Assembly (NCBI GenBank): GCA_030645815.1
Contig: JAUSMW010000130.1
Span: forward strand, 1 to 58,659
Reading direction: 5' to 3'
Origin: Candidatus Saccharimonadota bacterium
GTDB taxonomy: Bacteria; Patescibacteriota; Saccharimonadia; Saccharimonadales; Saccharimonadaceae
DNA: 58,659 bases
Shown: positions 19,955 to 58,659 of the stretch, in pieces
How the letters are laid out: the number at the start of each line of letters is the position of its first letter
How positions within the stretch are numbered: the stretch's first letter is position 1
Notes under the pieces: generated by a model
The model's database searches: none
Told to the model about the DNA's origin: nothing
The model's input: only the letters and a program-made list of their open reading frames with translations
Program-made: the position numbers and the translations under genes

Positions 19955-19983
19955 ACTATAACAGATGATAGAACGCATTGCAA
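19955..19983 (-). promoter_or_regulatory. Leaderless promoter of rpsO
   Basis: On the minus strand TTGCAA (19983-19978), 17 nt, TATAGT (19960-19955), then 9 nt to the ATG. It begins about 15 nt after the terminator at 20002-20030. Confidence 0.75.
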
Positions 19984-19997
19984 CACCTTGGATGTAG

Positions 19998-20030
19998 AAA
20001 ACCCGCCTCTGACTTCATGTCAAAAGCGGG
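19998..20030 (-). terminator. Strong terminator of the micropeptide unit
   Basis: On the minus strand a stem of 12 pairs (five GC pairs CCCGC/GCGGG, then TTT/GAG with wobble pairs, then TGAC/GTCA) encloses loop ATGAA and is followed by TTTT (20001-19998). It separates the micropeptide genes from rpsO. Confidence 0.8.
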
Positions 20031-20073
20031 CTAATGTTGGTAGTTAATGAAATTGGTAGACATCCTGCCTACG

Positions 20074-20163
20074 CTACATCCCAAAACTACCGTGGTGTCC
20101 TGACTTGCCCAGCCCTTCGAGCATCTTGCCGATGAACTTTCCGGCGCGTCTCCAGAACTTCAT
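20074..20163 (-). CDS. Cationic amphipathic micropeptide, 29 residues
   Basis: The ORF starts ATG at 20163 with AAGGAG five nt upstream and ends TAG at 20074. The peptide begins MKFWRRAGKF, continues with a Gly/Lys/Leu helix-like middle and ends in GKSGHHGSFGM. It has six Lys/Arg, one acidic residue, one Trp and two adjacent His; net charge is about +5. The ATG overlaps the TGA of the upstream micropeptide (ATGA). It looks like a membrane-active peptide such as a leaderless bacteriocin or type I toxin, but that is inference from composition only. GC is about 54% by my count, above the neighbours. Confidence 0.6.
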   Translation of the reverse strand: MKFWRRAGKFIGKMLEGLGKSGHHGSFGM

Positions 20164-20237
20164 ATGAGCTCCTTGTCTTTGCGAGCAAACTCACGAATTT
20201 CGAGAATCAGCTCACGTGCCCATTCGATAAACCTCAC
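20160..20237 (-). CDS. Charged amphipathic micropeptide, 25 residues
   Basis: The ORF starts GTG at 20237, preceded by GGGGAGGT at good spacing, and ends TGA at 20160. The peptide begins MRFIEWAREL and ends RKDKELI. Six basic and six acidic residues alternate with Ile, Leu, Phe and Trp at helical spacing, so it should form an amphipathic helix with no net charge. It overlaps the next micropeptide by 4 nt, so the two are translationally coupled. It could be a partner, immunity peptide or leader peptide for the second. No homologue is known to me. Confidence 0.55.
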   Translation of the reverse strand: MRFIEWARELILEIREFARKDKELI

Positions 20238-20288
20238 AGCTACCTCCCCAGGTATTGATTGATGAAACAGCAATATGTGAGTAAATTT

Positions 20289-20317
20289 ATTATACCTCAA
20301 TCAGTTAAATGTGTCGC
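20289..20317 (-). promoter_or_regulatory. Promoter of the micropeptide unit
   Basis: On the minus strand GCGACA (20317-20312) and TATAAT (20294-20289) are 17 nt apart. The -35 lies in the last codons of truB and the -10 just after its stop. The predicted leader before the GTG is about 45 nt. Confidence 0.7.
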
Positions 20318-38042: not shown

Positions 38043-38134
38043 GGAGAGGTGTCCGAGTGGTTGAAGGAGCACGCTTGGAAAGCGTGTATGCGCAGCGATG
38101 CGTATCGAGGGTTCGAATCCCTCTCTCTCCGCCA
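38043..38134 (+). tRNA. tRNA-Ser (GGA)
   Basis: A complete class II tRNA with acceptor GGAGAGG/TCTCTCC (one G-T pair), anticodon stem CACGC/GCGTG enclosing loop TTGGAAA (anticodon GGA), a long variable arm, T arm GAGGG-TTCGAAT-CCCTC and discriminator G. The 3' CCA is encoded (38132-38134). It reads UCC and UCU codons. Confidence 0.97.
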
Positions 38135-39079: not shown

Positions 39080-39109
39080 TTGCATAAAATACCCCACCAC
39101 CGCTATAAT
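39080..39109 (+). promoter_or_regulatory. Promoter of the ABC exporter operon
   Basis: TTGCAT (39080-39085), 18 nt, TATAAT (39104-39109). The leader is about 30 nt and has only a weak GAGA before the ATG. Confidence 0.6.
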
Positions 39110-39145
39110 AATAGTGACTATAAACAACTAAACTGCGAGAAATTA

Positions 39146-39979
39146 ATGACACCGAAAACCCCACCACCGGTGATAAAACTGAAAGGCCTGCACAAAAGCT
39201 ATGGTTATGGCGATGCAGCTACAAGTGCACTCGACGGTATGGACTTAACAATTAACAAGGGTGAGTTTGTTGCAATAATGGGACCTAGTGGATGTGGTAA
39301 AACAACGTTGCTGAATATTTTGGGATTACTGGACAAGCCAACTGACGGAGAGTATGAACTTAGTGGTGAACCAGTTGATGCTATTTCTCAGAGCCGTCGA
39401 GCACAAATCCGTCGTGAACAAATCGGCTTTGTATTTCAAAGTTTCAACCTATTGCCTCGTCAAACCGTTATCGAGAACGTTGCACTGCCGTTAATTTATA
39501 GCGGTCAAACACATACATCACGGCTTATGGCTGCCAGTAAAACTTTACGTCTGTTTCATCTACAAAATCGTGAATATTATATGCCGCATCAGCTATCTGG
39601 TGGTCAGATGCAGCGTGTGGCAATCGCCCGTGCACTAGTTAACCAACCATCAATCATTTTAGCTGATGAGCCAACTGGTAATTTAGATAGTAAATCTAGT
39701 GAGATAATCATGCAAGAACTCAGCGAAATACATAATCGTGGCAATACTATCATCATGGTAACGCACAACTCTCGCCTGACTTCGTATGCTGATCGAATAA
39801 TCTATATGTTGGACGGCCGTATTGATACCGACAGCAAAGTTGTGCCAAAAAAACCGGACCTGGCTGCCAAAATACCTCTCAGCGCAAAACGACGAAAAGT
39901 TAATGCAAGTAAGAAGAAGTCTACTAAAGCCAAACCAGCAGTCAAAAAGGTATCAAAGAAAAAGGTAGTTAAAAAATGA
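39146..39979 (+). CDS. MacB/LolD-type ABC transporter ATPase
   Basis: The 277-residue ATPase begins MTPKTPPPVIKLKGLHKSYG and shows Walker A GPSGCGKTTLL, Q-loop, signature LSGGQMQRVAIARAL, Walker B ILADEPTGNLDS and the H-loop His in MVTHN. The last about 40 residues are a Lys/Ala-rich tail (KKKSTKAKPAVKK) not typical of the family, like that of S20 here. It overlaps the permease start by 4 nt (ATGA). The pair probably exports a peptide or lipoprotein; substrate unknown. ATG 39146 is preferred to the upstream start at 39080, which overlaps the promoter. Confidence 0.92.
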   Translation: MTPKTPPPVIKLKGLHKSYGYGDAATSALDGMDLTINKGEFVAIMGPSGCGKTTLLNILGLLDKPTDGEYELSGEPVDAISQSRRAQIRREQIGFVFQSFNLLPRQTVIENVALPLIYSGQTHTSRLMAASKTLRLFHLQNREYYMPHQLSGGQMQRVAIARALVNQPSIILADEPTGNLDSKSSEIIMQELSEIHNRGNTIIMVTHNSRLTSYADRIIYMLDGRIDTDSKVVPKKPDLAAKIPLSAKRRKVNASKKKSTKAKPAVKKVSKKKVVKK

Positions 39980-41208
39980 GGTCATTTACAAACGCCAATA
40001 TTGCAGTTGATAGTTTACGCAACTCTCGCACACGAACAAACATGACAATGCTCGGTATTATTATTGGCGTCGTGAGCATAACGCTAATTTTGTCATTGGG
40101 CGAAAGTATCCGCCAATCTAGCATCAACCAAGTTAACCAACTAGGAAATAATTTAATCGTTGTACGCCCTGGCGGCTCGCAAGCAGGCTCGCTAACCGAA
40201 AATAATTTGTTCAGCCTTAGCCCTATAGCACCATATGCCACCACTACCCTGCAAGAACGTGACGTCAAAACTTTGGCAAAACAAAATAACGTCACAAGCG
40301 TGACACCACTGATGCTAATCAATGGCAGTATTGATCAAAACCAAAGGGCTAGCGAACAAGCGTCAATATTAGCAACAACACCTAGCTTTGCTACCACTTT
40401 AAAGTTAGAACCTAGTAATGGGCAGTTCATAGACGAAGAGACAAATAGTGACACCGTTGTAATCGGTCAACAATTAGCCATAGATATGTATGGTACAGAC
40501 CAGATTTTAGGAAAAAGATTAAAAATTAGAGGTATTGAACACACCATCATCGGAGTTTTACAGCGTACTAATCAACCAATCGGTATTAGCGGTGTCGACA
40601 TAGACCACTCGGCAATCATCAGTATCGAGGACGGAAAATCATTTAACCAAGGTGTTGCCCAAATACAACAAATATTGATAGTCCCTATTAGCAATGCAGC
40701 AAAACAAAGTGTCATAAATAATTCTAGAAAAATATTAACCAAACAACACAATGGCGAAAAAGATTTCCAAGTTATGGCTGGTGAAGATGCTGTGTTGGTA
40801 TCGAAGAACTTTTATAAATTTATCACAACCCTAACCGCTATCGTTGCTGGCATATCGCTAGTTGTTGGAGGTGTTGGAATCATGAATATCATGTTGGTAG
40901 CCGTAGCCGAAAGAACGCGCGAAATTGGAATACGAAAAAGTTTAGGTGCTAGCAATCGTCATATCATGTGGCAGTTCTTGATAGAAGCACTAATAATTAG
41001 TGTCGTCGGAGGCATAATAGGCATTATCATCGCTATAGCTGCAGCTTTATTTATAGGATTGATGTTAGGTCTCACGCCAATTGTCAGTTTGCAAGTTATG
41101 GCAATATCTCTAGGATTATCTGTGTGTGTAGGTGTCATATTCGGCCTTGGGCCAGCTATACGCGCATCAATGAAAGACCCTATCGAGGCACTGCGCGAAC
41201 AAAACTAA
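39976..41208 (+). CDS. MacB/FtsX-type ABC permease
   Basis: The 410-residue permease has one N-terminal membrane helix (MLGIIIGVVSITLILSL), a large extracytoplasmic MacB_PCD domain (about 60-280) and three C-terminal helices with the FtsX signature (ERTREIGIRKSLGAS after VVGGVGIMNIMLV). With the ATPase it forms a mechanotransmission-type transporter. Its stop overlaps the stop of the convergent 41205-42077 gene by 4 nt. No membrane fusion partner is adjacent. Confidence 0.92.
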   Translation: MRSFTNANIAVDSLRNSRTRTNMTMLGIIIGVVSITLILSLGESIRQSSINQVNQLGNNLIVVRPGGSQAGSLTENNLFSLSPIAPYATTTLQERDVKTLAKQNNVTSVTPLMLINGSIDQNQRASEQASILATTPSFATTLKLEPSNGQFIDEETNSDTVVIGQQLAIDMYGTDQILGKRLKIRGIEHTIIGVLQRTNQPIGISGVDIDHSAIISIEDGKSFNQGVAQIQQILIVPISNAAKQSVINNSRKILTKQHNGEKDFQVMAGEDAVLVSKNFYKFITTLTAIVAGISLVVGGVGIMNIMLVAVAERTREIGIRKSLGASNRHIMWQFLIEALIISVVGGIIGIIIAIAAALFIGLMLGLTPIVSLQVMAISLGLSVCVGVIFGLGPAIRASMKDPIEALREQN

Positions 41209-44524: not shown

Positions 44525-47500
44525 TTATTGTTTTTCAACAGCGAACCATTGTACGTCTAGAGGTTCGGTTATCGGTTGAGAAAGCTTGATGATGAAGCCG
44601 TTTGCGGTTCTGGTCTGGGCAACAACCCTGACATCAGGGTCTTCGGTACTGAGGAAGACGTTTGGCTTGCCGCCGAGTGGTTTAGCGAATAGTACCTGCA
44701 CCTCAGTCTGGCCAGGCTGAACAGTCACTGTACCAGTGTTATTTGATACTACTACCCTGCCATTAGCGTTCAATGTACCGTCTACATTAACATTTGCCTT
44801 GAACAGTGCATCTGCAGAAAATTCAACTTGTTTCCTAAACTCGGTATCTGCAATAAAGACTGCTTTCTTGGTACTGGCATCACCCAGAGTTTCAGTGGTT
44901 AGTACGTCTTTGTACTGTTTCAAATCATCAACATCATTCTCCAAGTCTTTAATCCTACTCAGCAACGCGTCGTTGCTGTTATCTTCTGGTGGTGATGCAC
45001 CTGTGTCTGCTGTTTCAGTCTGATTAGTATTATCAATACCATCGCTCTGGGTTATTCCATCTGGTGCAATTGACGCTGGAGGGTCGTCTGACCAGACACG
45101 CATATAGTCTACATCAAGGTTACGGCTAGTTGTACTAGTTACGTTGTTCATAATGCTATAGCCCAGTGGTATAGCGCTACCAGGTACCGCAGTGGTGTGA
45201 GTCGCAGATAGAGTACCATCGACATAGAAACGAACTGCTGCATTACCGTTATCTATTTCTATGCGCAACCTGTGCCATGCACCAGTACCACCCAGTGCGG
45301 TTGTTATTTGTTCAGTACCACTGGCGCTTCTAGACACAGCTTCCCATGATGTACCAGCCGCTTGTTTACGGAAGAACGCTTCGTTGGCAGCTTGGTTTGT
45401 ATCTGCACTAATTGCAGTAGATATACCATTATGGTCACTAAACCCTACTATATTCCTGTGGTCGGTGTTGGTATCGCTCAAGACCCTTGCCTCAAATACA
45501 GGGTTCAGGCTTCGCTCTGTTATTAGTCCTCCACCCGAGCCAAAGAATGTTGTGGCATTGGCCGCAGGTGTTGCAAAGTTAAACCTACATACACCAGATA
45601 CACCTGTAACTGCCGCCTGAGCCAAACGACCGGTGGTTGCACTACCACTAAAGATTGAGCCGTATGTGTTCACCTGTGCAGTTGTTGCTGATTTTGTAGC
45701 TTCGTTTGTTAAACAGTCAGTCCACTGTTGATTCCAGCTACTGTTGATACGACCAAAGACATACAACTGGTCGCGCGCTAAGCTATCTGGGTTATTAGCA
45801 TCACCTGCGCCAATGATTAGTTGTGCCTGGTTAAAGCTTTGCGTATTGTCATTTTTCACACGTATGAGGTTAGCAGAGCTCGGACCGTTTATTTCAAATG
45901 CAGTACCTGTAGTTAGCGAGCCTGCATTGATTTGGAACACCTTTCCTGTAGCAGTAGCATCGTCTATCTGGAAGCCGTTACCAGTGTGAGCACCGGTGAA
46001 GTTATAGCGAACGATACCGTTTGTCAGTGCACTTGTTGAGCCTGACGTAACTGATAGTGCATTACCAGTTAGACCTGTACCTGTGTTACCTATAACTAGG
46101 CCATTACCAGATGTGAGTGAATTGGCGTTGAGTTTATATACAGTTCCCGTGGTTGTGACATCGTCAATTTGTATACCGTTACCGGTATGTGCACCTGTGA
46201 AGTTATAGCGTATGCCACCATTTGTAAAGGCACTAGTTGAAGCACTTGTTACAGAAAATGCGTTGCCTGTTAGCCCAGTTGACGTACTAGATATAGCCAA
46301 GCCATTACCTGATGTGAGTGAATTGGCGTTGAGTGCGAAGACGGTTCCAGTCGCTGTTGCGTCATCTACCTGCACACCGTTTCCAGTGTGCGCACCAGTA
46401 AAGTTGAATCGTACTCCACCGTTTGTAAAGGCACTAGTTGAGCCAGTTGTCGCCGACAATAAGTTGCCCGTCAGACCAGTACCTGTATTTCCTAGTACTA
46501 AACCATTACCACTTGTCAGCGAATTAGCATTCATCTGGTATACATTGCCAGTAGAGGTCACATCATCAATCTGCACTCCGTTACCAGTATGTGCACCAGT
46601 GAAATTCCATCTGATGCCACCATTGGCAAATGCGCCAGTTGAAGCACTTGTGACGGATAGTAGGTTACCCGTAGTAGCGGTATTTGTACTGGCGATTGCC
46701 AGACCGTTGCCGGATGTTAGAGAGTTAACATTGAGAGCGAATGCTGTTCCGGCAGTTTCCACTGAGTTTTGTGAAATGTTACCACCAAATCCTACGTGAG
46801 TGTTGAATTGTGATGAGCCACCAACAGTAAGACCGCCTTGTACATCAACGTTGTTACCGAACATTACATCACCAGTAGTTGAAATGGTGCTGGTTTCTAG
46901 GCCACCTGTCTCGAGTTGTTGGATATACGAGCCACCAGAATCGTATACCTGCAACGTAGCACCAACTTGGCTAACTCCGTAAATGTACCTACCTTGTACA
47001 AAGACGCTCTTTGCAGTAGCGTTGGTAGGCATAGTACCAACGCTGGTCACACTAGCTGGGTTTGTAATGTCTAGAACTTGGATAGTGTTAGATGTACCGT
47101 TAGCAGCATATAGATATTTGCCCTGTACATATATAGATCGAACATTAGCTGTGGTTGGGCTTGAAATAACCGTTGGGGATGATGGGTTAGAGATGTCTAC
47201 AACACTGGTGGTTCCGGAGGCTGTATTTGCAACATACGCATATTTGCCCTGCACAACAACATCTTGTGGGCTAGAGCCTACGTTCACATTACCAGGGTTA
47301 GTTGGACTAGTTGGGTCAGATACATCGTAGATACTCATGCTATTACCACTACTATCTGCAACATACGCATATTTACCCTTAACATATATACCTATTGGGG
47401 CCGTGCCTGGAATGCTACCTACACTAGTCGGGCTGGCTGGGTTGGAGACATCGACTATCTCCATCTGCGCTGCCGAGCTTTCAGTAATATATGCATATTT

Positions 47501-50500
47501 ACCTTGTACATATACTCGCTGTGCACCAGCACCTAGAGAGAGGCTACCTACACTAGTCGGGCTGGCTGGGTTGGAGACATCGTAAATACCCAGTACACTA
47601 GTGGTAAAGTTGACGACATAGGCATATTTACCCTGAACATGTACACCACGTGGGCTTGCAGCTGTCGCAATACTACCGACACTGACAGGGCTGGCTGGGT
47701 TAGAAACGTTATATATGTTCAACGTATTACCTGTACTACTAGTCACATATGCGTACTTGCCGGAAACATACTGTGCCAACGGTGCTACACCAGTAGCAAC
47801 ACTACCTGTTGCAGCGGCAGGAACAGTACCAATCAATGTTTTTGCGCCAGCTATAGTCTGTGAACCGGTTGTTACCATGCCAGGATTAGTTGCATCAGCC
47901 GGGCCAAAGGTAATTGTAGAACCAGCTATGCTGGCGCCATTTGTTTGTGATGAGCCTGAAAATGCACCAACTGTAGTAACGCCTGAACCGCTCGCAGCAG
48001 CACAAGTACCACCAGTCGTGATACCACCCAGAACTACTTGGTTTTGCAAGAATTGTCCACCACTACATGTCACAGACGTGCCTGATGTACCGTTAATTTT
48101 ATAAACTGCGCCAGATGCAAGATTGACGTTGCCATCTTTGTCGACAGAGAATTTCTCTACACTATTATTTTGGAATGAAACCAATTTTGCACCAGCAGTT
48201 GTATAGCTAGGTGTATTAACTGTCAATCCTACCGCAGAAGCACCATCAACAACTAACGATGTAACCCCGCCTGTTGTTAAAGTGATGCCGGAACTAAATG
48301 TCTTGGCACCTGCGAGTGTTTGTGTGCCAGTAGTCACTAAGCCTGGGTTCGTACCATCTGCTGCGCCAAATGTGATAACTGTTCCTGCAATACTCGCACC
48401 ATTGGCAATCGATGCACCGGCGAACGTGCCGACTGATGTCACACCAGTGTCAGTATCGACATCAGCAGAACAGACAAATGCAGTGCCGTTCCATTGCAGT
48501 TTTGTTGTACCTGAACAGGTTGGTGCATTAATAGCTATTGTTGGACTCCAGCCTTCACCCGCCGTACCAGTAACAGATATACCGTTGCCTGCGGTATTAC
48601 CAGCTACATAGTTACCGGTTGTATCAGTGGTCAGAGCTACAGCGTTAGCTGCAATCGTTAATACACCAGCAGTTGTGACTGTAGCATCACTAGAAATCAT
48701 AGAGTGCAGCAATACTGTACCGGTTGCGTCTGGGAAGGTAACTGTGCGTGCAGTGGTTGGATTGGTAATAGCAAAGGTTGTATATACCGTATCAACTGTC
48801 GATCCATCAAATACCATGGCGTTGGTGCCAACTATCTTTGATGTAAAGGTTAGTGTATCTGTAGCTGCGTCACCGATAGTTGTATTGCCATTGGCTAGCA
48901 AGTTGCCTGCTAGAGTTAATCCGCCGCCAGAGGTAAAGTCTGTACCGGCATTACCAATATTAGTTATGAGGTTTGCATTCATGTCTAATCCAGAGCCAGC
49001 AACGCCTGTAAAGGTAATTGTATCGGCACTAGTGTCACCTAGTGTTGTGTTGCCATTTACTAGTAGGTTGTTATTAAATGTTTTATCGCCACCTAGCGTC
49101 TGCGTACCGGTGGTTACAAGACCAGGATTAGATGTACCTGCAGCACCAAGTGTTAGTACTGTTCCAGAGATACTGGCACCATTAGCGATTGATGCACCTG
49201 TGAATGTACCGATGCTCGTGACACCAGTATCTGTAGGTGTAGCACAAGTACCCGCAGTAGTTAGTCCGCCTGTCACTACTTGGTTTTGGAGGAACTGCCC
49301 GCCGCTACAGGTTGTGGTTGCGCCCGACACACCTCCAACCTTGTAGGCCCCAGATACATCAACATTACCTGTCACACCTATACTATTATTGAATAATATA
49401 TTGTATCCTGTATCACCTATAAATAGGTCGCCTGATCCACCGCCGTATGCCATGAAGTTTAATACATTGGCGCCAGAGCTATCGTAGAAATACATAGCAT
49501 CTGTCTCTCCGGTTATATATTTAGACACCGGGTCAACACTAAAAGCATTTGCTCCTACCTTGAATGTCGCACTGTTACCAACCTGAACTTGGCTAGCGCT
49601 AGAATTGACTGTAAACAATGATGTATTCGCTGAATTCTTTACATCGAATAGGTTAGAATACGCGGCTTTTATAAGTACCTGTCCATTAAAGGTACTTGAA
49701 CCATTACCAGTTATATTGTTACTAAATATTTTATTTCCGCCAAACGTTTGCGTGCCAGTTGTGACCATACCCGGATTAGTCGCATCTGCTGCACCAAAGG
49801 TAATGGTATTGCCAGATATACTGGCACCGTTGGCTATTGAGCCACCGAATGCGCCAACTGTGGTGACTGTATTGGCACAGCTACCACCTACAGTTAGACC
49901 ACCACTGACCACTTGGTTCTGAAGGAATTGACCACTACTACATGTTGTCGAAGCACCGGCTGTACCGGCAATTCGATAACCAGTTGAGCTATTAATGTCA
50001 CCGATGACATCGAGTGGATAAGCCCCGCCGTATTGGCCAATCCCAACATTACCTGCTGCATCTGTGGTAATTGCTGGGTTACCTAGACCAGTAGTAACCT
50101 GGAAATCATCTGTACTGAAGTACACAAGTCCCGTGCCACTTGAATCTATATCCATGACTGAGGTACCGCTACTATTAGCCACAGTTAACTTACCATCATT
50201 ACCAGTACCTGTGCCACCTATCAAAAGCTTTCTGTTGCCAGAAGTTGTTGAGAAACTGAGCGCAGTAACACCAGATGCATCCTGTATCCTAAAGGCATTT
50301 GCGCTGTTGGTCATTGTTTTTTGCAAATATGTACCATAGAGAGACAGTGAAGCATTTGAAGTTCCACTGTTGATACCTACTGTTGTGGCGCGGTTTGATC
50401 CATTGACAGAAAATGCAGTTGTAGACGCAGAGTTTTGGATTTCAAAAGTCAAAGCAGTATCGCCGCTGTTCTGTCTAAATAAAGAATTGCCCGCTATATG

Positions 50501-53500
50501 TAAAGTTCTAAGTGGCGCATCTGTACCTATACCAACACGACCATTCAGTGTGTCGACTGACAATACACTAGATCCATTTTGCTGCTGTACCTGCAGTGCG
50601 TTAGTTGAGTCTGGTCCCCGCACAGTTAGTGGTGAATTGATTGAACCGTTTAATGTAATGCGTCCGACATCATTGGATGTGTACTTCACAGGTGAAACAA
50701 CTGCGTTGTCGATGTAGAATTTATGTATGGTTACGCCATCAGTGGCTCCTTGTGTTGCAACACCAATAAATGGACTACTAGTTATTATGTTGCCTGTCGT
50801 AAATGTACATGTAATATTAGTCCATGTGTCGGCTGTGATGGTTGCACTGGTACAGGTTTTTGTTAAACCATCAGCATCATCGAGTCGTTTTACTATTGAG
50901 AATGATTTAGATGCAGCTGTGGCTCCATCCAGTCTCACCATAAAACTAGCAGCATATGTAGTATTTGGCTGCAAGTTTGAACCAGTATTAATAACTGCAC
51001 CATCCAAGCTGCCGCCGTTAGGATCTGCTTCTACTTGTAATGATTTAGTACCTGTATACGCTTGAGCTGATGTGTTTGTCAGTGTACCTGAGTTATAGTT
51101 ACCCCAACCTGTATTGCCAGATTCAAAATCTGTGTTTGCGTTAAAGGCGGCTGTTGATTCTAGCTGCACAGAATCTATGTATATAGTTCGAGCTGTTGCG
51201 TCTGTCTGTTTGATATAAACATAGTCTGTACCAGACACATTTGCGGTCGTAAAGCTACAACTTATTTTCGTCCATCCGCCACCATTAATACTAGTTGATG
51301 CACAGTTTGTATCAGTCGAGCCGTCTTCGCTCCTTCCAATAGCCAGTGGGATGCTTGTCGCTGTCAAAGATGAAGATTTAGCATAGAAAGTAAGAGTATA
51401 GTTTGTTTGTGAAGCCAGTGCATAGTTGTATTTTGCGCCGTCATTTGCAGCTGCGGTTGTAGTTACTTGTGCAGAGCCATTACCGAGATACGATTGAGAC
51501 GTATTTTGTGACACACTCGCACCGCCAGTTGCTGTCCAGCCTGTAGTATTTGACTCAAAATTGCCATTTGTCAGCAGGTTGTTTGTAGTTGATGTATCAA
51601 ATTTGATGAGCTGTTGGCCATCAGCTTTGGCTATCTGGAATGCGTTTGTACTATTAGATGAATTTTGGAAGTTTGCTATACCCGTAAATGTCTTGTTACC
51701 CGCAAATGTCTGTGTACCTGTTGTAACAAGACCTGGGTTGGTACCATCAGCAGCACCAAGTGTTAGTACTGTTCCAGATATACTAGCACCATTAGTAATT
51801 GATGCACCAGTAAATGTACCAATGCTCGTTACACCCGTATCGACAGTTATACAGTCTGCCCATGCGCTGTTTTGGTAACATCGGAATTTATTGGTGTTAG
51901 AGTTATAATACATCGCGCCAGTTGTACCTGTTGGGTCACCAGAGCTAGTCTTGATATCCAAAACTAATAAGTCCGGTGTTGTTGTCCCTGCACCACCAGC
52001 ACCAACTTGTATATTACCTGTTACAGAACCTGTACCAGATTGTAGATAAACTCCTCCTGTACCACTTCTAATAACGGTATTCGAAGTCCCCGTTGTTGAG
52101 CCGACATTAGTTTGATGGTCTGTGGCATTGTTACCAAAACTACATGCACCGGTTCCACAGTTAACCACTACTGACGTTGCGCCAGTACCATTACCTATGG
52201 TTATTGTTTTGGCATTTGCACCCGTACCAATATTGAGCGCATTGGTAGAACCTGAGTCTACAGACAAAGCACCAGATGATGTCACTGTTGGAGTAGTAAT
52301 ACTTGTACTGAAGGTATTATTGAGTGTAAATGTATTGGCAGCATTTTTGTATGCAACATTTGATAGTGTGCCTGCTGTGTTGATATCTAGTCCATTTATA
52401 CGGTACACTTTTCCGCTTGAAAGGTTTGCATCACCATCAACATTGAGTGTGTATGCAGTACTTGGGCTTGTACCTATACGAAGTCTGTTTGTTGTAGCAT
52501 CGAAATAGAGGCCATCACCACCGGCGGTTCCTGTAGCTTGTAAGACTTCAGTGGCACCATTAAACTCTAGGTAACTAGTCAAACCATACACTTGCCATAT
52601 GCTATTTGCATCGTCATAAATGCTTCCTCCATTTGCACCAGATACAATAAAGTTTCCTCCATTAACATCCGAGGATATATTCCTACTTGCAGCATCAACG
52701 TTAAACACTCCGACAAGAGAACTGTCGGAGACAGCAAAATTGCCATTATTACCAGTATCGCCAACTTGGACAAAACCCGAACCTCCAAATGTAGAAACTT
52801 TGAGGACGGTGTTTCCACCTGATGTTTGTACCTTGAAGGCATCAGTAGAATTCGTTGCGGATTGCACCAAAGTATCTCCTGTAAGAGTTTTATTACCTGC
52901 AAACGTTTGAGTACCAGTTGAAACAAGGCCCGGATGTGTTGCGTCAGCTGTTTGTAATACTAATGTGTTACCAGAAATTACTGCACCATTGGCAGATTTT
53001 GTTTGGCTGTCAATAGTACCAATTGATGTGACGACTGTACCATTACATGTACCACCAGTAGTTAGCCCACCTTGTAGTACTGCGTTTTGCAAGAACTGAC
53101 CACTACTACAAGTCGTAGTTGCACCAGCTGTGCCACCGATCCTATATATACCACCGCCAGCAACATCTAGATCACCAGTAACAGTAACTAAATATGTTGA
53201 TGCGTCAACATTAAACAAGGGGTCATTTAATGAGTTCTGCACTTGGAAGGCACTCGCGGAGTCATTCTGAGATACTATAGTGGTATCGTTCGAGTTAATT
53301 AAAACGTAACCACCAGAAGTTGATAGGCTAATATTCCCGTTGGCTGTAACACTAAACTGATTCGTGCTCAGCAAGTCTATGCCTCCAGACCCGGCAGAAA
53401 GGTCAAGTGCGGTTGTGCTACTAGAATTACCTACGGTTATTGTACTACCGAGGCTGGTTGTACCAATATTCAAGGCGTACCCTGTGGCTGAATTGATACC

Positions 53501-56500
53501 AAGAGTTCCTGCTGAGGAGGCTATGCTTGTATTCCCCAAACCAGTCAGCGTTGAATTGGCTGATGCAAAAACAAACCGGTCTGTACCGTTAGTTTTTATC
53601 CGTAGACTATTAGCATCGTTCGTACCAAGACTAGCAGTAGTACCAAAACTGTTGCCGCCCTGGATAAAGAAATTATCATCGAGAACTGCGTTATCCACTG
53701 TGAGAGCTCCAGAAGATACTGTGAGTCCTGTCCCTGTTAAATCAGTGAAAGCATCGCCGTTCATAGTGAAAGTGTCGCCGGTTTGAAGTGTAAGGTTGCC
53801 GTTCGCAGTAACTAGACCAGTGAAGGTCTTGTCACCAGCAAAGGTTTGAGTGCCTGTAGTAACCATGCCTGGATTAGTAGCATCAGCTGGGCCAAAGGTT
53901 ATGACTGTTCCAGCGATGCTAGCACCATTTGCAATTGATGAACCGCTAAAGGCTCCGACAGACGTCACACCTGTATCAGTGTCTATATCCGAACCACAAG
54001 TAAAAGTACCACTCCATTTAGGTATCTGACCGGTTGTACATGCTAAGCCTGTAATTGTGTTGCCAGATCGAGAAAATAGGCCGTTTCCAGTAAAGGTAAG
54101 AACATTTTCTTTGCCGTTAAAGGTATTCCAGTCTGTAGCACTAAGGAGTCCAGTGGTTGAAGTGTTAGCAGTTGGAATTGCAGTACTGGTTGCTGAGGTT
54201 ATTTGTCCCTGAGCGTTGACGGTAATAACGGGAATAGTTACCGAACTACCATATGTCGCAGCAGTGACGCCGGTGTTAGACAAGCTAATTGTAGGTGTCC
54301 AGCCCTCGCCTAATGTACCGCTAATACTGACACCAGTTCCTGCTGCCACATCAACCACATAGTTGCCGGTTGTATCAGTACCTAGGGCCACTGCATTTGC
54401 AGCGACAGTTAGTGCTGTTGCACCACTAGAGTTTAGTGTACCTGTCACATCACCAGTAAATGTATCACCAGATAGTGAGACCGTGCCAGAACGATTCGGG
54501 AAAGTAATAGTACGAGCAACCGTTGGGTCAGTTATGGCGAATGTAGTATAGATGTTATCGTTGGTTGTTCCTTCGAATACTAATGGCGAAGCGCCACGAA
54601 TTTCACTAGTAATCGTCAAACCATCTGTTGCAGCATCGCCTATTGTGACGTCACCGTTAGCATTGAGTGTGCTACTAAGAGTTAATGCTCCACTAAATGT
54701 CTTTGCGCCTGCAAGTGTTTGTGTACCAGTTGTAACTAATCCTGGGTTGGTACCATCGGCTGCGCCGAAGGTTATAACTGTACCTGCGATACTGGCGCCG
54801 TTAGCAATTGAAGCACCGGTGAATGTGCCAACTGAGGTTACACCGGTGTCGGTGTCGACATCTGCTGAACAGACAAAGGCTGTGCCGGTCCACTGTAGTT
54901 TGGTCGTACCACTACAAGTCGGAGCGTTGATGGCAATCGTTGGGCTCCAGCCCTCACCTGCTGTACCGGTGATAGATATACCATTACCTGCAGTGTTACC
55001 GGCTACATAGTTACCGGTTGTGTCAGTGCCGAGTGCGACCGCATCAGCAGCAATCGTGAGGACACCTGCACTCGTAGTAGTTGCGTCACCTGAAATCATC
55101 GAATGTAACAATACTGTACCAGTCGCATTCGGGAAGGTAATTGTACGTGCGACGGTTGGGTCTGTAATAGTAAAGGTGGTGTAGATATTGTCGTTGGTTG
55201 TACCTTCGAACACAAGTGGAGAAGCACCACGAATTTCAGACGTAACAGTGAGTCCATCAGTTGCAGCATCACCAATAGTCACATCACCGTTAGCATTTAA
55301 TGTACTAGCAAGTGTTAGGGCGCCGTTAAATGTCTTTGCACCTGCAAAAGTTTGTGTGCCGGTTGTTACCATGCCTGGGTTGGTAGCATCAGCAGGACCA
55401 AAAGTAATGGTTGTACCAGAGATGCTCGCTCCATTCGCTATTGAAGTACCAGAAAATGCACCAACCGTAGTGACACCTGTATCGGTGTCGGTATCTGACC
55501 CGCAAGCAAACGTACCACCACTCCATTTCGGTATTTGACCTGTAGTACAGGCTAACCCTGTAACCGTGTTACCGCTTCGACTAAACAGCCCATTCCCTGT
55601 AAATGTCAGGACGTTTTCTTTGCCATTAAACGTGTTCCAATCGGTGGATGTCAATAATCCTGTGGTCGAGGTGTTGGCTGTTGGAATTGCTGTAGATGTG
55701 GCAGAAGTTATTTGCCCCTGTGCGTTTACTGCAATAACTGGAATTGTCGTCGAGCTACCATATGTAGCCGCTGTAACGCCAGTGTTCGCTATATCTATAG
55801 TACCGCTAGTGGTGATTGTCCCACCGTTTAGCCCTGTTCCAGCAGTAATTGATGTAACTGTTCCGCCAGAGTTATTGTCAGCTGAACATGCCCATAGACT
55901 GGTAGTTGAGTTATATTTAAGCAGCTGGCCTGTACTACAACCGCGCAATAGTCCGATTTCACCACCACTTGCCTCTAGACCTGAACCGCTACTAGTTGTT
56001 GCAGTGTTGGCATCTCCGGCGTCAGATAAATCTAGTGTCAGGTTAATTGTGCCACCGAGGCTAACGCTACTACCGCCAGATAAGCCACCTGCAGTATTCA
56101 CTGTAATTGCACTGTTCGCAAGTTGTGAATTGGCAATACCTGTTAATGTGACACTAGTTGTAGATGCTGCGGTTAAACGACCTTGAGCATCAACTGTTAG
56201 TTGAGGTAGCGTCAATACTCCACCACCAGCATTGCTAGGAGCATAAGTTCCAGCTGTGACTGCAGTATTAGCTAATCCAAAACTAATATCGTTGGTACTA
56301 CGACTTGCTGTTGTGCCTGTTCCGTTTACAAAGTTAACTGTATTTCCAGACGCGATATTTTGACCTGCTCCACCATTAGCTGAGATATTAAAGTTTGTTG
56401 TATCTACATCTGACCCACAACTAAATGCTGATCCGTTCCAGCTTAGCTTGTCTGTACCTGAACAGGTTGGTGAATTGATAGCAATTGTTGGACTCCAGCC

Positions 56501-58659
56501 CTCGCCTGCTGATCCGGTTACTGAGATACCATTGCCGGCAGTATTTCCAGCGACATAGTTACCTGTTGTATCGGTTCCTAGTGCAACTGCATTTGCGGCG
56601 ATAGTTAAAGCACCGGCACTAGTGACTGTTGCATCACCAGAAATCATAGAGTGAAGTAGAACTGTTCCTGTAGCATCAGCAAAAGTAACAGTTCGAGCGA
56701 CAGTTGGGTCAGTAATTGCGAATGTAGTGTAAACGCCGTCATTAGTGGTACCTTCAAATGCAAGCGGCGAAGCGCCGCGGACTTCTCCTGTAAATGTAAT
56801 ACCATCCGACGCTGCATCTCCGAGGGTGACATCGCCATTGGCATTCAGTGTACTGACAAGCGTTAATGCGCCGTTAAATGTCTTTGCACCAGCGAATGTC
56901 TGCGTACCTGTTGTAACCATACCAGGGTTTGTTGCATCAGCGGGGCCGAATGTTATGACTGTACCTGCGATACTGGCACCGTTTGCGATTGATGTACCGC
57001 TAAAGGCGCCGACTGAAGTCACACCAGTGTCGGTATCGGTGTCAGACCCACAAGCAAACGTTCCACCTGACCACTTCGGAATCTGACCTGTTGTACAAGC
57101 TAACCCTGTAACTGTATTTCCTGAACGACTGAATAGTCCATTTCCAGTAAAGGTCAGGACGTTTTCCTTACCGTTAAATGTATTCCAGTCGGTAGATGCC
57201 AGTAGTCCAGTAGTTGAGGTATTAGCTGTTGGTATTGCGGTACTGGTTGCTGAGGTTATTTGTCCCTGAGCATTGACTGCTATGACTGGAATAGTTGTTG
57301 ATGAACCATATGTTGCTGCCGTAACACCTGTATTAGCAATGTCAATTGTTCCACTAGTAGTGATGGTGCCACCATTAAGGCCGGTTCCCGCGGTGATAGA
57401 TGTAACTGTACCGCCGGAATTGTTGTCCGCTGAACACGCCCATAGACTAGTAGTTGAGTTATACTTGAGCAACTGACCGGTAGAACAGCCTCTTAGTAAT
57501 CCAATCTCTCCTCCACTCGCTTCTAGACCTGAACCACTACTAGTTGTTGCAGTGTTAGCATCACCCGCATCAGATAAATCGAGTCCTAGACTAATACTTC
57601 CACCCAAGCTGACTGAGCTTCCGCCGCTCAATCCGCCAGATGTATTGATTGTGATTGCACTGTTTGCGAGTTGTGAATTAGCAATGCCGGTTAATGTTAC
57701 GTTTGTTGTTGACGCAGCCGTCAAACGACCCTGCGCATCAACAGTAAATTGCGGTAAGGTCAGTACTCCGCCACCTGCGTTACTTGGTGCATATGAACCT
57801 GCCGATACAGCTGTGTTAGCTAGGGTGACTGTTGGGCTCCAACCTTCACCAGCAGTTCCTGAAATACTGATGCCTGTACCTCCGGTGAGTCCCGCTACAT
57901 AATTACCAGTTGTATCAGTTCCTAAGGCTACCGCATCAGCTGCAATTGTCAGTGCAGTTGCACCACTAGAGTTTAGCGTACCGGTCACGTCACCGGTGAA
58001 AGTATCGCCAGATAGTGAGACTGTACCCGATCGATCTGCGAAAGTAACAGTTCTTGCCGTTGTAGGATCTGTGATAGCAAAGGTTGTGTATACGTTGTTA
58101 TTAGTTGTTCCTTCGAATACTAATGGTGAAGCACCACGGATTTCCGATGTAATAGTGAGCCCGTCTGTAGCTGCGTCACCGATAGTGACATCGCCATTGG
58201 CATTGAGCGTGCTGCTAAGAGTCATTGCCCCACTAAAGGTCTTTGCACCTGCGAAGGTTTGAGTACCAGTTGTAACCAGTCCTGGGTTAGTACCATCAGC
58301 TGCACCGAAGGTGATAACTGTACCAGCGATACTAGCACCGTTAGCGATAGAGGCACCGGTGAATGTGCCAACTGAGGTTACGCCGGTATCGGTGTCAGTA
58401 TCGGCACCACAAGCAAACGTACCACCACTCCATTTTGGTATTTGGCCAGTTGTACAAGCCAAACCTGTCACTGTATTACCGGATCGACTGAATAACCCAT
58501 TTCCAGTGAAGGTTAATACATTTTCTTTGCCATTGAATGTATTCCAATCAGTTGACGTGAGCAGACCAGTTGTAGATGTATTAGCTGTCGGAATTGCGGT
58601 TGAACTAGCACTTGTGATTTGTCCGTGAGCATTCACGGCAATAACAGGAATAGATGTTG
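44525..58659 (-). CDS. Giant repetitive surface protein, N-terminus beyond window
   Basis: One frame without a stop covers 14,135 nt (at least 4,711 residues); the first Met in the window sits inside a repeat, so the true start lies outside. From the visible N-terminus: long repeats of 453-516 residues with Thr/Gly/Ser-rich beta-strand sequence (to about 54.0 kb); further beta repeats; two carbohydrate-binding-like modules (50.69-51.59 kb, LLTNGNFESNTTGW); more beta repeats; a seven-bladed LVIVD-type propeller (46.93-47.80 kb); a 67-residue tandem repeat array (45.9-46.8 kb); a concanavalin A-like lectin domain (45.09-45.56 kb); a coiled coil (44.92-44.99 kb); and a C-terminal beta domain ending WFAVEKQ. 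Cys pairs such as CTTGQIPKWSGGTFACGSD recur. The style is that of phage tail fibres and giant adhesins. It probably binds host cells or glycans. No anchor is visible in this part. Confidence 0.9.
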   Translation of the reverse strand, partial: TSIPVIAVNAHGQITSASSTAIPTANTSTTGLLTSTDWNTFNGKENVLTFTGNGLFSRSGNTVTGLACTTGQIPKWSGGTFACGADTDTDTGVTSVGTFTGASIANGASIAGTVITFGAADGTNPGLVTTGTQTFAGAKTFSGAMTLSSTLNANGDVTIGDAATDGLTITSEIRGASPLVFEGTTNNNVYTTFAITDPTTARTVTFADRSGTVSLSGDTFTGDVTGTLNSSGATALTIAADAVALGTDTTGNYVAGLTGGTGISISGTAGEGWSPTVTLANTAVSAGSYAPSNAGGGVLTLPQFTVDAQGRLTAASTTNVTLTGIANSQLANSAITINTSGGLSGGSSVSLGGSISLGLDLSDAGDANTATTSSGSGLEASGGEIGLLRGCSTGQLLKYNSTTSLWACSADNNSGGTVTSITAGTGLNGGTITTSGTIDIANTGVTAATYGSSTTIPVIAVNAQGQITSATSTAIPTANTSTTGLLASTDWNTFNGKENVLTFTGNGLFSRSGNTVTGLACTTGQIPKWSGGTFACGSDTDTDTGVTSVGAFSGTSIANGASIAGTVITFGPADATNPGMVTTGTQTFAGAKTFNGALTLVSTLNANGDVTLGDAASDGITFTGEVRGASPLAFEGTTNDGVYTTFAITDPTVARTVTFADATGTVLLHSMISGDATVTSAGALTIAANAVALGTDTTGNYVAGNTAGNGISVTGSAGEGWSPTIAINSPTCSGTDKLSWNGSAFSCGSDVDTTNFNISANGGAGQNIASGNTVNFVNGTGTTASRSTNDISFGLANTAVTAGTYAPSNAGGGVLTLPQLTVDAQGRLTAASTTSVTLTGIANSQLANSAITVNTAGGLSGGSSVSLGGTINLTLDLSDAGDANTATTSSGSGLEASGGEIGLLRGCSTGQLLKYNSTTSLWACSADNNSGGTVTSITAGTGLNGGTITTSGTIDIANTGVTAATYGSSTTIPVIAVNAQGQITSATSTAIPTANTSTTGLLTSTDWNTFNGKENVLTFTGNGLFSRSGNTVTGLACTTGQIPKWSGGTFACGSDTDTDTGVTTVGAFSGTSIANGASISGTTITFGPADATNPGMVTTGTQTFAGAKTFNGALTLASTLNANGDVTIGDAATDGLTVTSEIRGASPLVFEGTTNDNIYTTFTITDPTVARTITFPNATGTVLLHSMISGDATTTSAGVLTIAADAVALGTDTTGNYVAGNTAGNGISITGTAGEGWSPTIAINAPTCSGTTKLQWTGTAFVCSADVDTDTGVTSVGTFTGASIANGASIAGTVITFGAADGTNPGLVTTGTQTLAGAKTFSGALTLSSTLNANGDVTIGDAATDGLTITSEIRGASPLVFEGTTNDNIYTTFAITDPTVARTITFPNRSGTVSLSGDTFTGDVTGTLNSSGATALTVAANAVALGTDTTGNYVVDVAAGTGVSISGTLGEGWTPTISLSNTGVTAATYGSSVTIPVITVNAQGQITSATSTAIPTANTSTTGLLSATDWNTFNGKENVLTFTGNGLFSRSGNTITGLACTTGQIPKWSGTFTCGSDIDTDTGVTSVGAFSGSSIANGASIAGTVITFGPADATNPGMVTTGTQTFAGDKTFTGLVTANGNLTLQTGDTFTMNGDAFTDLTGTGLTVSSGALTVDNAVLDDNFFIQGGNSFGTTASLGTNDANSLRIKTNGTDRFVFASANSTLTGLGNTSIASSAGTLGINSATGYALNIGTTSLGSTITVGNSSSTTALDLSAGSGGIDLLSTNQFSVTANGNISLSTSGGYVLINSNDTTIVSQNDSASAFQVQNSLNDPLFNVDASTYLVTVTGDLDVAGGGIYRIGGTAGATTTCSSGQFLQNAVLQGGLTTGGTCNGTVVTSIGTIDSQTKSANGAVISGNTLVLQTADATHPGLVSTGTQTFAGNKTLTGDTLVQSATNSTDAFKVQTSGGNTVLKVSTFGGSGFVQVGDTGNNGNFAVSDSSLVGVFNVDAASRNISSDVNGGNFIVSGANGGSIYDDANSIWQVYGLTSYLEFNGATEVLQATGTAGGDGLYFDATTNRLRIGTSPSTAYTLNVDGDANLSSGKVYRINGLDINTAGTLSNVAYKNAANTFTLNNTFSTSITTPTVTSSGALSVDSGSTNALNIGTGANAKTITIGNGTGATSVVVNCGTGACSFGNNATDHQTNVGSTTGTSNTVIRSGTGGVYLQSGTGSVTGNIQVGAGGAGTTTPDLLVLDIKTSSGDPTGTTGAMYYNSNTNKFRCYQNSAWADCITVDTGVTSIGTFTGASITNGASISGTVLTLGAADGTNPGLVTTGTQTFAGNKTFTGIANFQNSSNSTNAFQIAKADGQQLIKFDTSTTNNLLTNGNFESNTTGWTATGGASVSQNTSQSYLGNGSAQVTTTAAANDGAKYNYALASQTNYTLTFYAKSSSLTATSIPLAIGRSEDGSTDTNCASTSINGGGWTKISCSFTTANVSGTDYVYIKQTDATARTIYIDSVQLESTAAFNANTDFESGNTGWGNYNSGTLTNTSAQAYTGTKSLQVEADPNGGSLDGAVINTGSNLQPNTTYAASFMVRLDGATAASKSFSIVKRLDDADGLTKTCTSATITADTWTNITCTFTTGNIITSSPFIGVATQGATDGVTIHKFYIDNAVVSPVKYTSNDVGRITLNGSINSPLTVRGPDSTNALQVQQQNGSSVLSVDTLNGRVGIGTDAPLRTLHIAGNSLFRQNSGDTALTFEIQNSASTTAFSVNGSNRATTVGINSGTSNASLSLYGTYLQKTMTNSANAFRIQDASGVTALSFSTTSGNRKLLIGGTGTGNDGKLTVANSSGTSVMDIDSSGTGLVYFSTDDFQVTTGLGNPAITTDAAGNVGIGQYGGAYPLDVIGDINSSTGYRIAGTAGASTTCSSGQFLQNQVVSGGLTVGGSCANTVTTVGAFGGSIANGASISGNTITFGAADATNPGMVTTGTQTFGGNKIFSNNITGNGSSTFNGQVLIKAAYSNLFDVKNSANTSLFTVNSSASQVQVGNSATFKVGANAFSVDPVSKYITGETDAMYFYDSSGANVLNFMAYGGGSGDLFIGDTGYNILFNNSIGVTGNVDVSGAYKVGGVSGATTTCSGGQFLQNQVVTGGLTTAGTCATPTDTGVTSIGTFTGASIANGASISGTVLTLGAAGTSNPGLVTTGTQTLGGDKTFNNNLLVNGNTTLGDTSADTITFTGVAGSGLDMNANLITNIGNAGTDFTSGGGLTLAGNLLANGNTTIGDAATDTLTFTSKIVGTNAMVFDGSTVDTVYTTFAITNPTTARTVTFPDATGTVLLHSMISSDATVTTAGVLTIAANAVALTTDTTGNYVAGNTAGNGISVTGTAGEGWSPTIAINAPTCSGTTKLQWNGTAFVCSADVDTDTGVTSVGTFAGASIANGASIAGTVITFGAADGTNPGLVTTGTQTLAGAKTFSSGITLTTGGVTSLVVDGASAVGLTVNTPSYTTAGAKLVSFQNNSVEKFSVDKDGNVNLASGAVYKINGTSGTSVTCSGGQFLQNQVVLGGITTGGTCAAASGSGVTTVGAFSGSSQTNGASIAGSTITFGPADATNPGMVTTGSQTIAGAKTLIGTVPAAATGSVATGVAPLAQYVSGKYAYVTSSTGNTLNIYNVSNPASPVSVGSIATAASPRGVHVQGKYAYVVNFTTSVLGIYDVSNPASPTSVGSLSLGAGAQRVYVQGKYAYITESSAAQMEIVDVSNPASPTSVGSIPGTAPIGIYVKGKYAYVADSSGNSMSIYDVSDPTSPTNPGNVNVGSSPQDVVVQGKYAYVANTASGTTSVVDISNPSSPTVISSPTTANVRSIYVQGKYLYAANGTSNTIQVLDITNPASVTSVGTMPTNATAKSVFVQGRYIYGVSQVGATLQVYDSGGSYIQQLETGGLETSTISTTGDVMFGNNVDVQGGLTVGGSSQFNTHVGFGGNISQNSVETAGTAFALNVNSLTSGNGLAIASTNTATTGNLLSVTSASTGAFANGGIRWNFTGAHTGNGVQIDDVTSTGNVYQMNANSLTSGNGLVLGNTGTGLTGNLLSATTGSTSAFTNGGVRFNFTGAHTGNGVQVDDATATGTVFALNANSLTSGNGLAISSTSTGLTGNAFSVTSASTSAFTNGGIRYNFTGAHTGNGIQIDDVTTTGTVYKLNANSLTSGNGLVIGNTGTGLTGNALSVTSGSTSALTNGIVRYNFTGAHTGNGFQIDDATATGKVFQINAGSLTTGTAFEINGPSSANLIRVKNDNTQSFNQAQLIIGAGDANNPDSLARDQLYVFGRINSSWNQQWTDCLTNEATKSATTAQVNTYGSIFSGSATTGRLAQAAVTGVSGVCRFNFATPAANATTFFGSGGGLITERSLNPVFEARVLSDTNTDHRNIVGFSDHNGISTAISADTNQAANEAFFRKQAAGTSWEAVSRSASGTEQITTALGGTGAWHRLRIEIDNGNAAVRFYVDGTLSATHTTAVPGSAIPLGYSIMNNVTSTTSRNLDVDYMRVWSDDPPASIAPDGITQSDGIDNTNQTETADTGASPPEDNSNDALLSRIKDLENDVDDLKQYKDVLTTETLGDASTKKAVFIADTEFRKQVEFSADALFKANVNVDGTLNANGRVVVSNNTGTVTVQPGQTEVQVLFAKPLGGKPNVFLSTEDPDVRVVAQTRTANGFIIKLSQPITEPLDVQWFAVEKQ
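45900..46790 (-). repeat. Tandem 201-nt (67-residue) repeat in the giant gene
   Basis: Equivalent codons fall at 46121, 46322, 46523 and 46724, exactly 201 nt apart, with a diverged further copy near 45920. Each unit contains NFTGAHTGNG and SLTSGNGL motifs. The period is a multiple of three, so it is protein-coding, not a CRISPR array. Confidence 0.85.
46930..47800 (-). repeat. Seven LVIVD-type beta-propeller repeats
   Basis: Seven copies of a 40-45-residue unit with the signature VQGKYAYV followed by a short loop, then IYDVSNPASPTSVG. The variants include VSGKYAYV, VKGKYAYV, VQGKYLYA and VQGRYIYG. Seven copies fit a closed seven-bladed propeller. Confidence 0.8.
54000..58659 (-). repeat. 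Four long in-frame repeats of 1.36-1.55 kb
   Basis: The segment encoding ENVLTFTGNGLFSRSGN recurs at 58518, 57159, 55611 and 54102, spaced 1359, 1548 and 1509 nt, all multiples of three. Each copy is highly similar in protein but differs at many synonymous sites. The set runs past the window edge. Confidence 0.85.

What the first reader, a model, noticed from the sequence alone, without database searches (positions are those of the whole stretch)
19998..20317. Self-contained transcription unit for two coupled micropeptides
The 340 nt between truB and rpsO hold a promoter (GCGACA-17-TATAAT), a 25-codon ORF with GGGGAGGT, a 29-codon ORF with AAGGAG overlapping it by ATGA, and a 12-pair terminator. 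All signals are separately good, and together unlikely by chance. Peptide one is an amphipathic, net-neutral charged helix; peptide two is cationic (about +5) with Trp and a HH motif. The coding part is about 50% GC by my count, above its neighbours. A membrane-active pair, a leaderless bacteriocin with partner, or a type I toxin-like unit are possible. Any function is inference.
Basis: partly seen in the sequence, partly recalled or inferred. Interest (0 to 1): 0.78.

Follow-up and report, generated by a model that had tools for sequence, protein, structure and literature searches.

The report
Orphan two-micropeptide operon after truB
A small Saccharibacteria-type bacterium carries, in one gene gap, a 313-base insert that looks like a tiny stand-alone operon for two short helical peptides seen nowhere else we searched; it is probably a real but lineage-specific gene pair, and its membrane-active role is a guess.

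Summary
On the minus strand between truB and rpsO lie a consensus-like promoter, a 25-codon ORF with a strong Shine-Dalgarno (SD), a 29-codon ORF with its own SD overlapping it by ATGA, and a strong hairpin with a short T tract. A coupled SD-ORF pair of this size arises in 0.18% of shuffles of the gap and is the only one in the 58.7-kb window on either strand. Peptide 2 (net +5) is far more amphipathic than shuffles of its own composition (0 of 5000); peptide 1 is net neutral and only marginally amphipathic. The ORFs are 51% GC against 35-46% for window genes, and peptide 2's codons are atypical.

The nearest relative (TruB 79% identical) has only 41 nt between truB and rpsO, so the unit is an insert of about 313 nt between the truB stop and a conserved rpsO promoter. 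No homologue was found in the family, class and phylum samples, phages, plasmids or profile libraries, so selection on the coding frames cannot be tested. Best reading: a recently acquired or newly born two-peptide operon, peptide 2 acting at membranes. Type I toxin signs were not found. Leaderless-bacteriocin membership is not supported.

The parts
20289..20317 (-). promoter GCGACA-17-TATAAT; -35 lies in the last truB codons; expected start of transcript near 20282
20242..20249 (-). Shine-Dalgarno GGGGAGGT of peptide 1
20160..20237 (-). ORF 1, 25 codons, GTG start: MRFIEWARELILEIREFARKDKELI (net charge 0)
20169..20174 (-). Shine-Dalgarno AAGGAG of peptide 2, inside ORF 1
20074..20163 (-). ORF 2, 29 codons, ATG start: MKFWRRAGKFIGKMLEGLGKSGHHGSFGM (net charge +5, strongly amphipathic)
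20056..20072 (-). small 7-pair hairpin after ORF 2
20000..20032 (-). 14-pair terminator-like hairpin followed by a short T tract (TTTTCTA)
19984..20296 (-). extent of the insert relative to the congener: truB stop to the rpsO -35 box
19955..19983 (-). rpsO promoter TTGCAA-17-TATAGT, conserved in the congener and placed after the terminator

Best explanation
A lineage-specific, self-contained operon of two translated micropeptides sits as an insert of about 313 nt between truB and the rpsO promoter. Shown from sequence: promoter-like site, two SD-led overlapping ORFs, strong hairpin, absence of the segment in the closest relatives, and an unusually amphipathic cationic peptide 2. Inferred: the transcript starts near 20282 and ends near 20000; ribosomes ending peptide 1 re-initiate on peptide 2, giving near-equal amounts; peptide 2 folds as a cationic amphipathic helix on membranes, and peptide 1 is a neutral helical partner. 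Whether it acts on competitors, on the host cell or inside the producer is open.
For: Coupled SD-ORF pair in 0.18% of shuffles, unique in the window. Peptide 2 hydrophobic moment 0.72, not reached by any of 5000 shuffles of its composition; peptide 1 0.56, P about 0.07. Peptide 1 codon score typical of genes here: 4.5 bits, 3.9% of stop-free off-frame segments as high. Terminator-like hairpin z -6.1. Congener has 41 nt in this gap with the same rpsO promoter. GC 51% against 35-46% for the genes of the window.
Against: No homologue of either peptide, so no conservation test. Peptide 2 codon usage is poor for this genome: -1.9 bits, 4th percentile of real coding segments. The T tract is short and promoter-like sites as a class are at chance level. 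The finding was picked post hoc, so a 0.18% chance per gap is not overwhelming over several hundred gaps in a genome. No exporter or immunity gene was recognised next to the unit.
Confidence: 0.5

Rival explanations
1. Non-functional foreign or random DNA: an insert carrying a terminator, in which the two ORFs are accidental.
For: Orphan in all searches; poor codon score of peptide 2; truB-rpsO is a variable gap that holds other inserts in about half of the relatives examined.
Against: Coupled SD-ORFs in only 0.18% of shuffles and peptide 2 amphipathicity not reached in 5000 shuffles.
Confidence: 0.27
2. A small RNA or regulatory leader of about 285 nt whose ORFs are incidental or only control the RNA.
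For: Whole transcript folds better than shuffles, z -2.6 to -3.8.
Against: The excess stability lies in the terminator: the leader plus ORFs alone have z -0.5 and the ORFs -0.1. No Rfam match at gathering score, and only a chance-level snoRNA hit at E 0.37. The hairpin precedes rpsO's own promoter, so it is not an rpsO attenuator of the usual layout.
Confidence: 0.1
3. A type I toxin-antitoxin-like unit: a membrane peptide mRNA held silent by structure and by an antisense RNA.
For: Short membrane-seeking peptide, own promoter and terminator; known type I toxins can be 29 aa (PMC11352940, abstract).
Against: No plus-strand promoter-like site within the unit at the standard threshold, only weak ones on a relaxed scan. 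Opening energy of the first start site 7.8 kcal/mol, equal to the mean with shuffled leaders. Mean hydrophobicity 0.39-0.48 is too low for a membrane-spanning helix (judgement from general knowledge).
Confidence: 0.06
4. A two-peptide leaderless bacteriocin aimed at neighbouring bacteria.
For: No leader, cationic Trp-bearing amphipathic peptide of 29 aa, adjacent second peptide; 30-31 aa cationic leaderless peptides are listed in PMC6131525.
Against: Peptide 1 is net neutral, no sequence match to any family, no adjoining exporter or immunity gene recognised. A MacB-like ABC transporter is about 19 kb away and unlinked.
Confidence: 0.07

Closest known systems
Leaderless bacteriocins, two- and multi-peptide (enterocin L50/DD14, garvicin KS, cereucins; PMC6131525)
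   Same: small peptides without leader, encoded side by side, at least one cationic and amphipathic with Trp
   Different: no sequence similarity found; peptide 1 net neutral; no adjoining transport or immunity genes recognised; phylum not among those reported in PMC11580447 for the aureocin A53-like group
Type I toxins (TimP, Lpt and similar; PMC7667032, PMC11352940)
   Same: very short ORF with own promoter and terminator
   Different: no antisense promoter found, no excess start-site sequestration, amphipathic rather than membrane-spanning
Phenol-soluble modulins (general knowledge)
   Same: 20-45 aa amphipathic helices encoded in tandem without leaders
   Different: no sequence match; different phylum; no dedicated exporter nearby

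Membership tests
Leaderless bacteriocins | short cationic peptide without N-terminal leader | tested here: inconclusive
   Peptide 2 is +5, 29 aa and amphipathic; peptide 1 is net 0
Leaderless bacteriocins | sequence similarity to a known subgroup | tested here: not met
   No Pfam, NCBIfam or PHROGs match and no PDB match; short queries limit sensitivity
Leaderless bacteriocins | linked ABC transporter or immunity protein | tested here: not met
   Neighbours with a Pfam match are housekeeping genes (S15, TruB, FtsK, RNase J, UDG, S20, DNA polymerase III delta and others); the nearest ABC/MacB genes seen are at 39080-41208; not every small neighbouring ORF was assigned
Leaderless bacteriocins | antibacterial activity right after translation | not testable with these tools
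   needs synthesis and assay
Type I toxin-antitoxin | antisense RNA antitoxin gene | tested here: not met
   no plus-strand promoter-like site inside the unit at the tool's threshold; weak sites only on a relaxed scan
Type I toxin-antitoxin | toxin start site silenced by mRNA structure | tested here: not met
   opening energy 7.8 against 7.8 +/- 2.1 with shuffled leaders
Type I toxin-antitoxin | toxicity on overexpression | not testable with these tools
   needs induction assay

The most novel reading that the evidence does not exclude
A new two-peptide membrane-active system, neutral helix plus cationic helix made in equal amounts by coupled translation, born or acquired in one lineage of Saccharibacteria-type bacteria and used against or upon other bacteria.
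Probability: 0.12. Interest if true: 0.65.

Novelty: new member of a known kind. Interest (0 to 1): 0.36.

Why it matters
If translated, it is a compact example of a micropeptide operon gained in a very small genome, in a group with little small-protein work held in the library searched. It would give a defined pair of peptides to test for action on membranes. If not translated, it shows how good all the sequence signals of a tiny operon can look in an insert without conservation.

Tried and rejected
Weak hits of peptide 2 in three related genomes (L115-L117, E 0.02-0.08): these fall inside or across other, longer reading frames, so chance. Phage and plasmid tblastn hits at E 0.6-8: chance. 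Start-site sequestration of peptide 1: looks striking in the fold (most bases paired at 0.85-1.0) but equals shuffled leaders. Known RNA families: none; 6S was not found anywhere in this genome either. Mobile element: no direct repeats, only one 8-bp inverted pair, single copy in the genome. Structure prediction was not run: each peptide is below the 30-residue minimum.

Full report
What is there. The segment reads on the minus strand. truB ends at 20297. Its last codons hold GCGACA, and 17 nt later comes TATAAT at 20294-20289. A GTG ORF of 25 codons (20237-20160) follows GGGGAGGT with a 4-nt spacer; an ATG ORF of 29 codons (20163-20074) follows AAGGAG with a 5-nt spacer and overlaps the first by ATGA. 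A 14-pair hairpin at 20032-20000 folds at z -6.1 against shuffles. Its tail is TTTTCTA, so it is a strong hairpin with a modest T tract. rpsO then has its own promoter TTGCAA-17-TATAGT at 19983-19955.

Is it more than chance. In 4000 dinucleotide shuffles of the 351-nt gap, 16% hold one SD-led ORF of at least 18 codons, but only 0.18% hold two joined within 15 nt. In the real window, both strands, this pair is the only one. Peptide 2 adds independent support: its hydrophobic moment of 0.72 over 18 residues was not reached by any of 5000 shuffles of its own letters; peptide 1 reaches 0.56 (P about 0.07). Codon usage is mixed: peptide 1 is gene-like, peptide 2 is not typical for this genome.

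Where it comes from. The window is contig C242 of a 1.46-Mb, 270-contig assembly; named relatives are Candidatus Saccharibacteria. In the only congener held (L005; the gap reads the same in L049 of the other collection; TruB 79% identical) truB and rpsO lie 41 nt apart, with the same rpsO promoter and the same TCATACCCTAATGATTAC start region. The extra 313 nt thus lie exactly between the truB stop and the rpsO -35 box. In the related loci examined the gap is variable: about eleven distinct ones are 34-75 nt, about fourteen hold 348-2803 nt, with other genes in several. The segment is single-copy in its genome, has no flanking direct repeats, and its ORFs are 51% GC against 35-46% for long genes of the window. 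Gain in this lineage is the simplest reading; loss in the congener cannot be formally excluded.

Relatives of the peptides. None was found in 295 family, 393 class and 380 phylum genomes (overlapping samples) for peptide 2, or in 295 family genomes for peptide 1; none in phages (both peptides) or plasmids (peptide 2) at meaningful E-values, nor in viral contigs by pattern, nor in Pfam, NCBIfam, PHROGs or PDB sequences. Short queries limit sensitivity. Hence no test of synonymous against nonsynonymous change is possible.

Mechanism. Most likely, RNA polymerase starts near 20282 and stops near 20000; ribosomes ending peptide 1 at ATGA re-initiate on peptide 2, whose SD lies in ORF 1. In the predicted fold the second start is paired with upstream ORF 1 sequence, which would fit coupling, but modelling a ribosome on ORF 1 did not clearly free its SD, so this is left as inference from the overlap. 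Peptide 2 should form a cationic amphipathic helix with Trp4; peptide 1 a neutral helix with interleaved Arg/Glu. A membrane role for peptide 2 is inferred from these properties only.

Against known systems. Type I toxin: no antisense promoter, no start sequestration beyond shuffled leaders, no spanning segment. Leaderless bacteriocin: resembles by size, charge and lack of leader; not by sequence, partner charge or linked transport genes. Small RNA: the fold excess is the terminator alone. These are judgements on what it is not shown to be; it may still work like a membrane-active peptide pair.

Verdict. Real and better than chance as anatomy; ordinary in kind (orphan small-ORF operon in a variable gap); function unproven. 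Interest is moderate to low because no conservation supports it.

Noticed in passing
window 44525-58636: A 4703-codon open frame reaching almost to the contig end; Pfam finds LVIVD repeats, CBM_4_9 carbohydrate-binding domains and a phage baseplate N-terminal motif. A giant probable surface protein in a small genome.
   Followed up: partly
window 38043-38131: A tRNA gene (54.7 bits) on the plus strand overlaps the upstream part of the CTP synthase open frame on the minus strand as called from its first TTG, so that start is probably too far upstream.
   Followed up: no
window 39080-41208: ABC ATPase plus MacB/FtsX permease pair, preceded by a 289-aa ORF without a Pfam match: a possible export system about 19 kb from the peptides.
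   Followed up: no
truB-rpsO gap in L012, L015, L026, L039, L041, L044 and others: The gap is a variable site in Saccharibacteria: L012, L015, L026, L039 and L041 carry a related-looking 232-238 aa ORF, others unrelated or short ORFs, others nothing.
   Followed up: partly
window 19990-19997 and 20074-20081: An 8-bp perfect inverted pair (GGATGTAG / CTACATCC) brackets the hairpins, one arm over the peptide 2 stop codon and one after the terminator.
   Followed up: no
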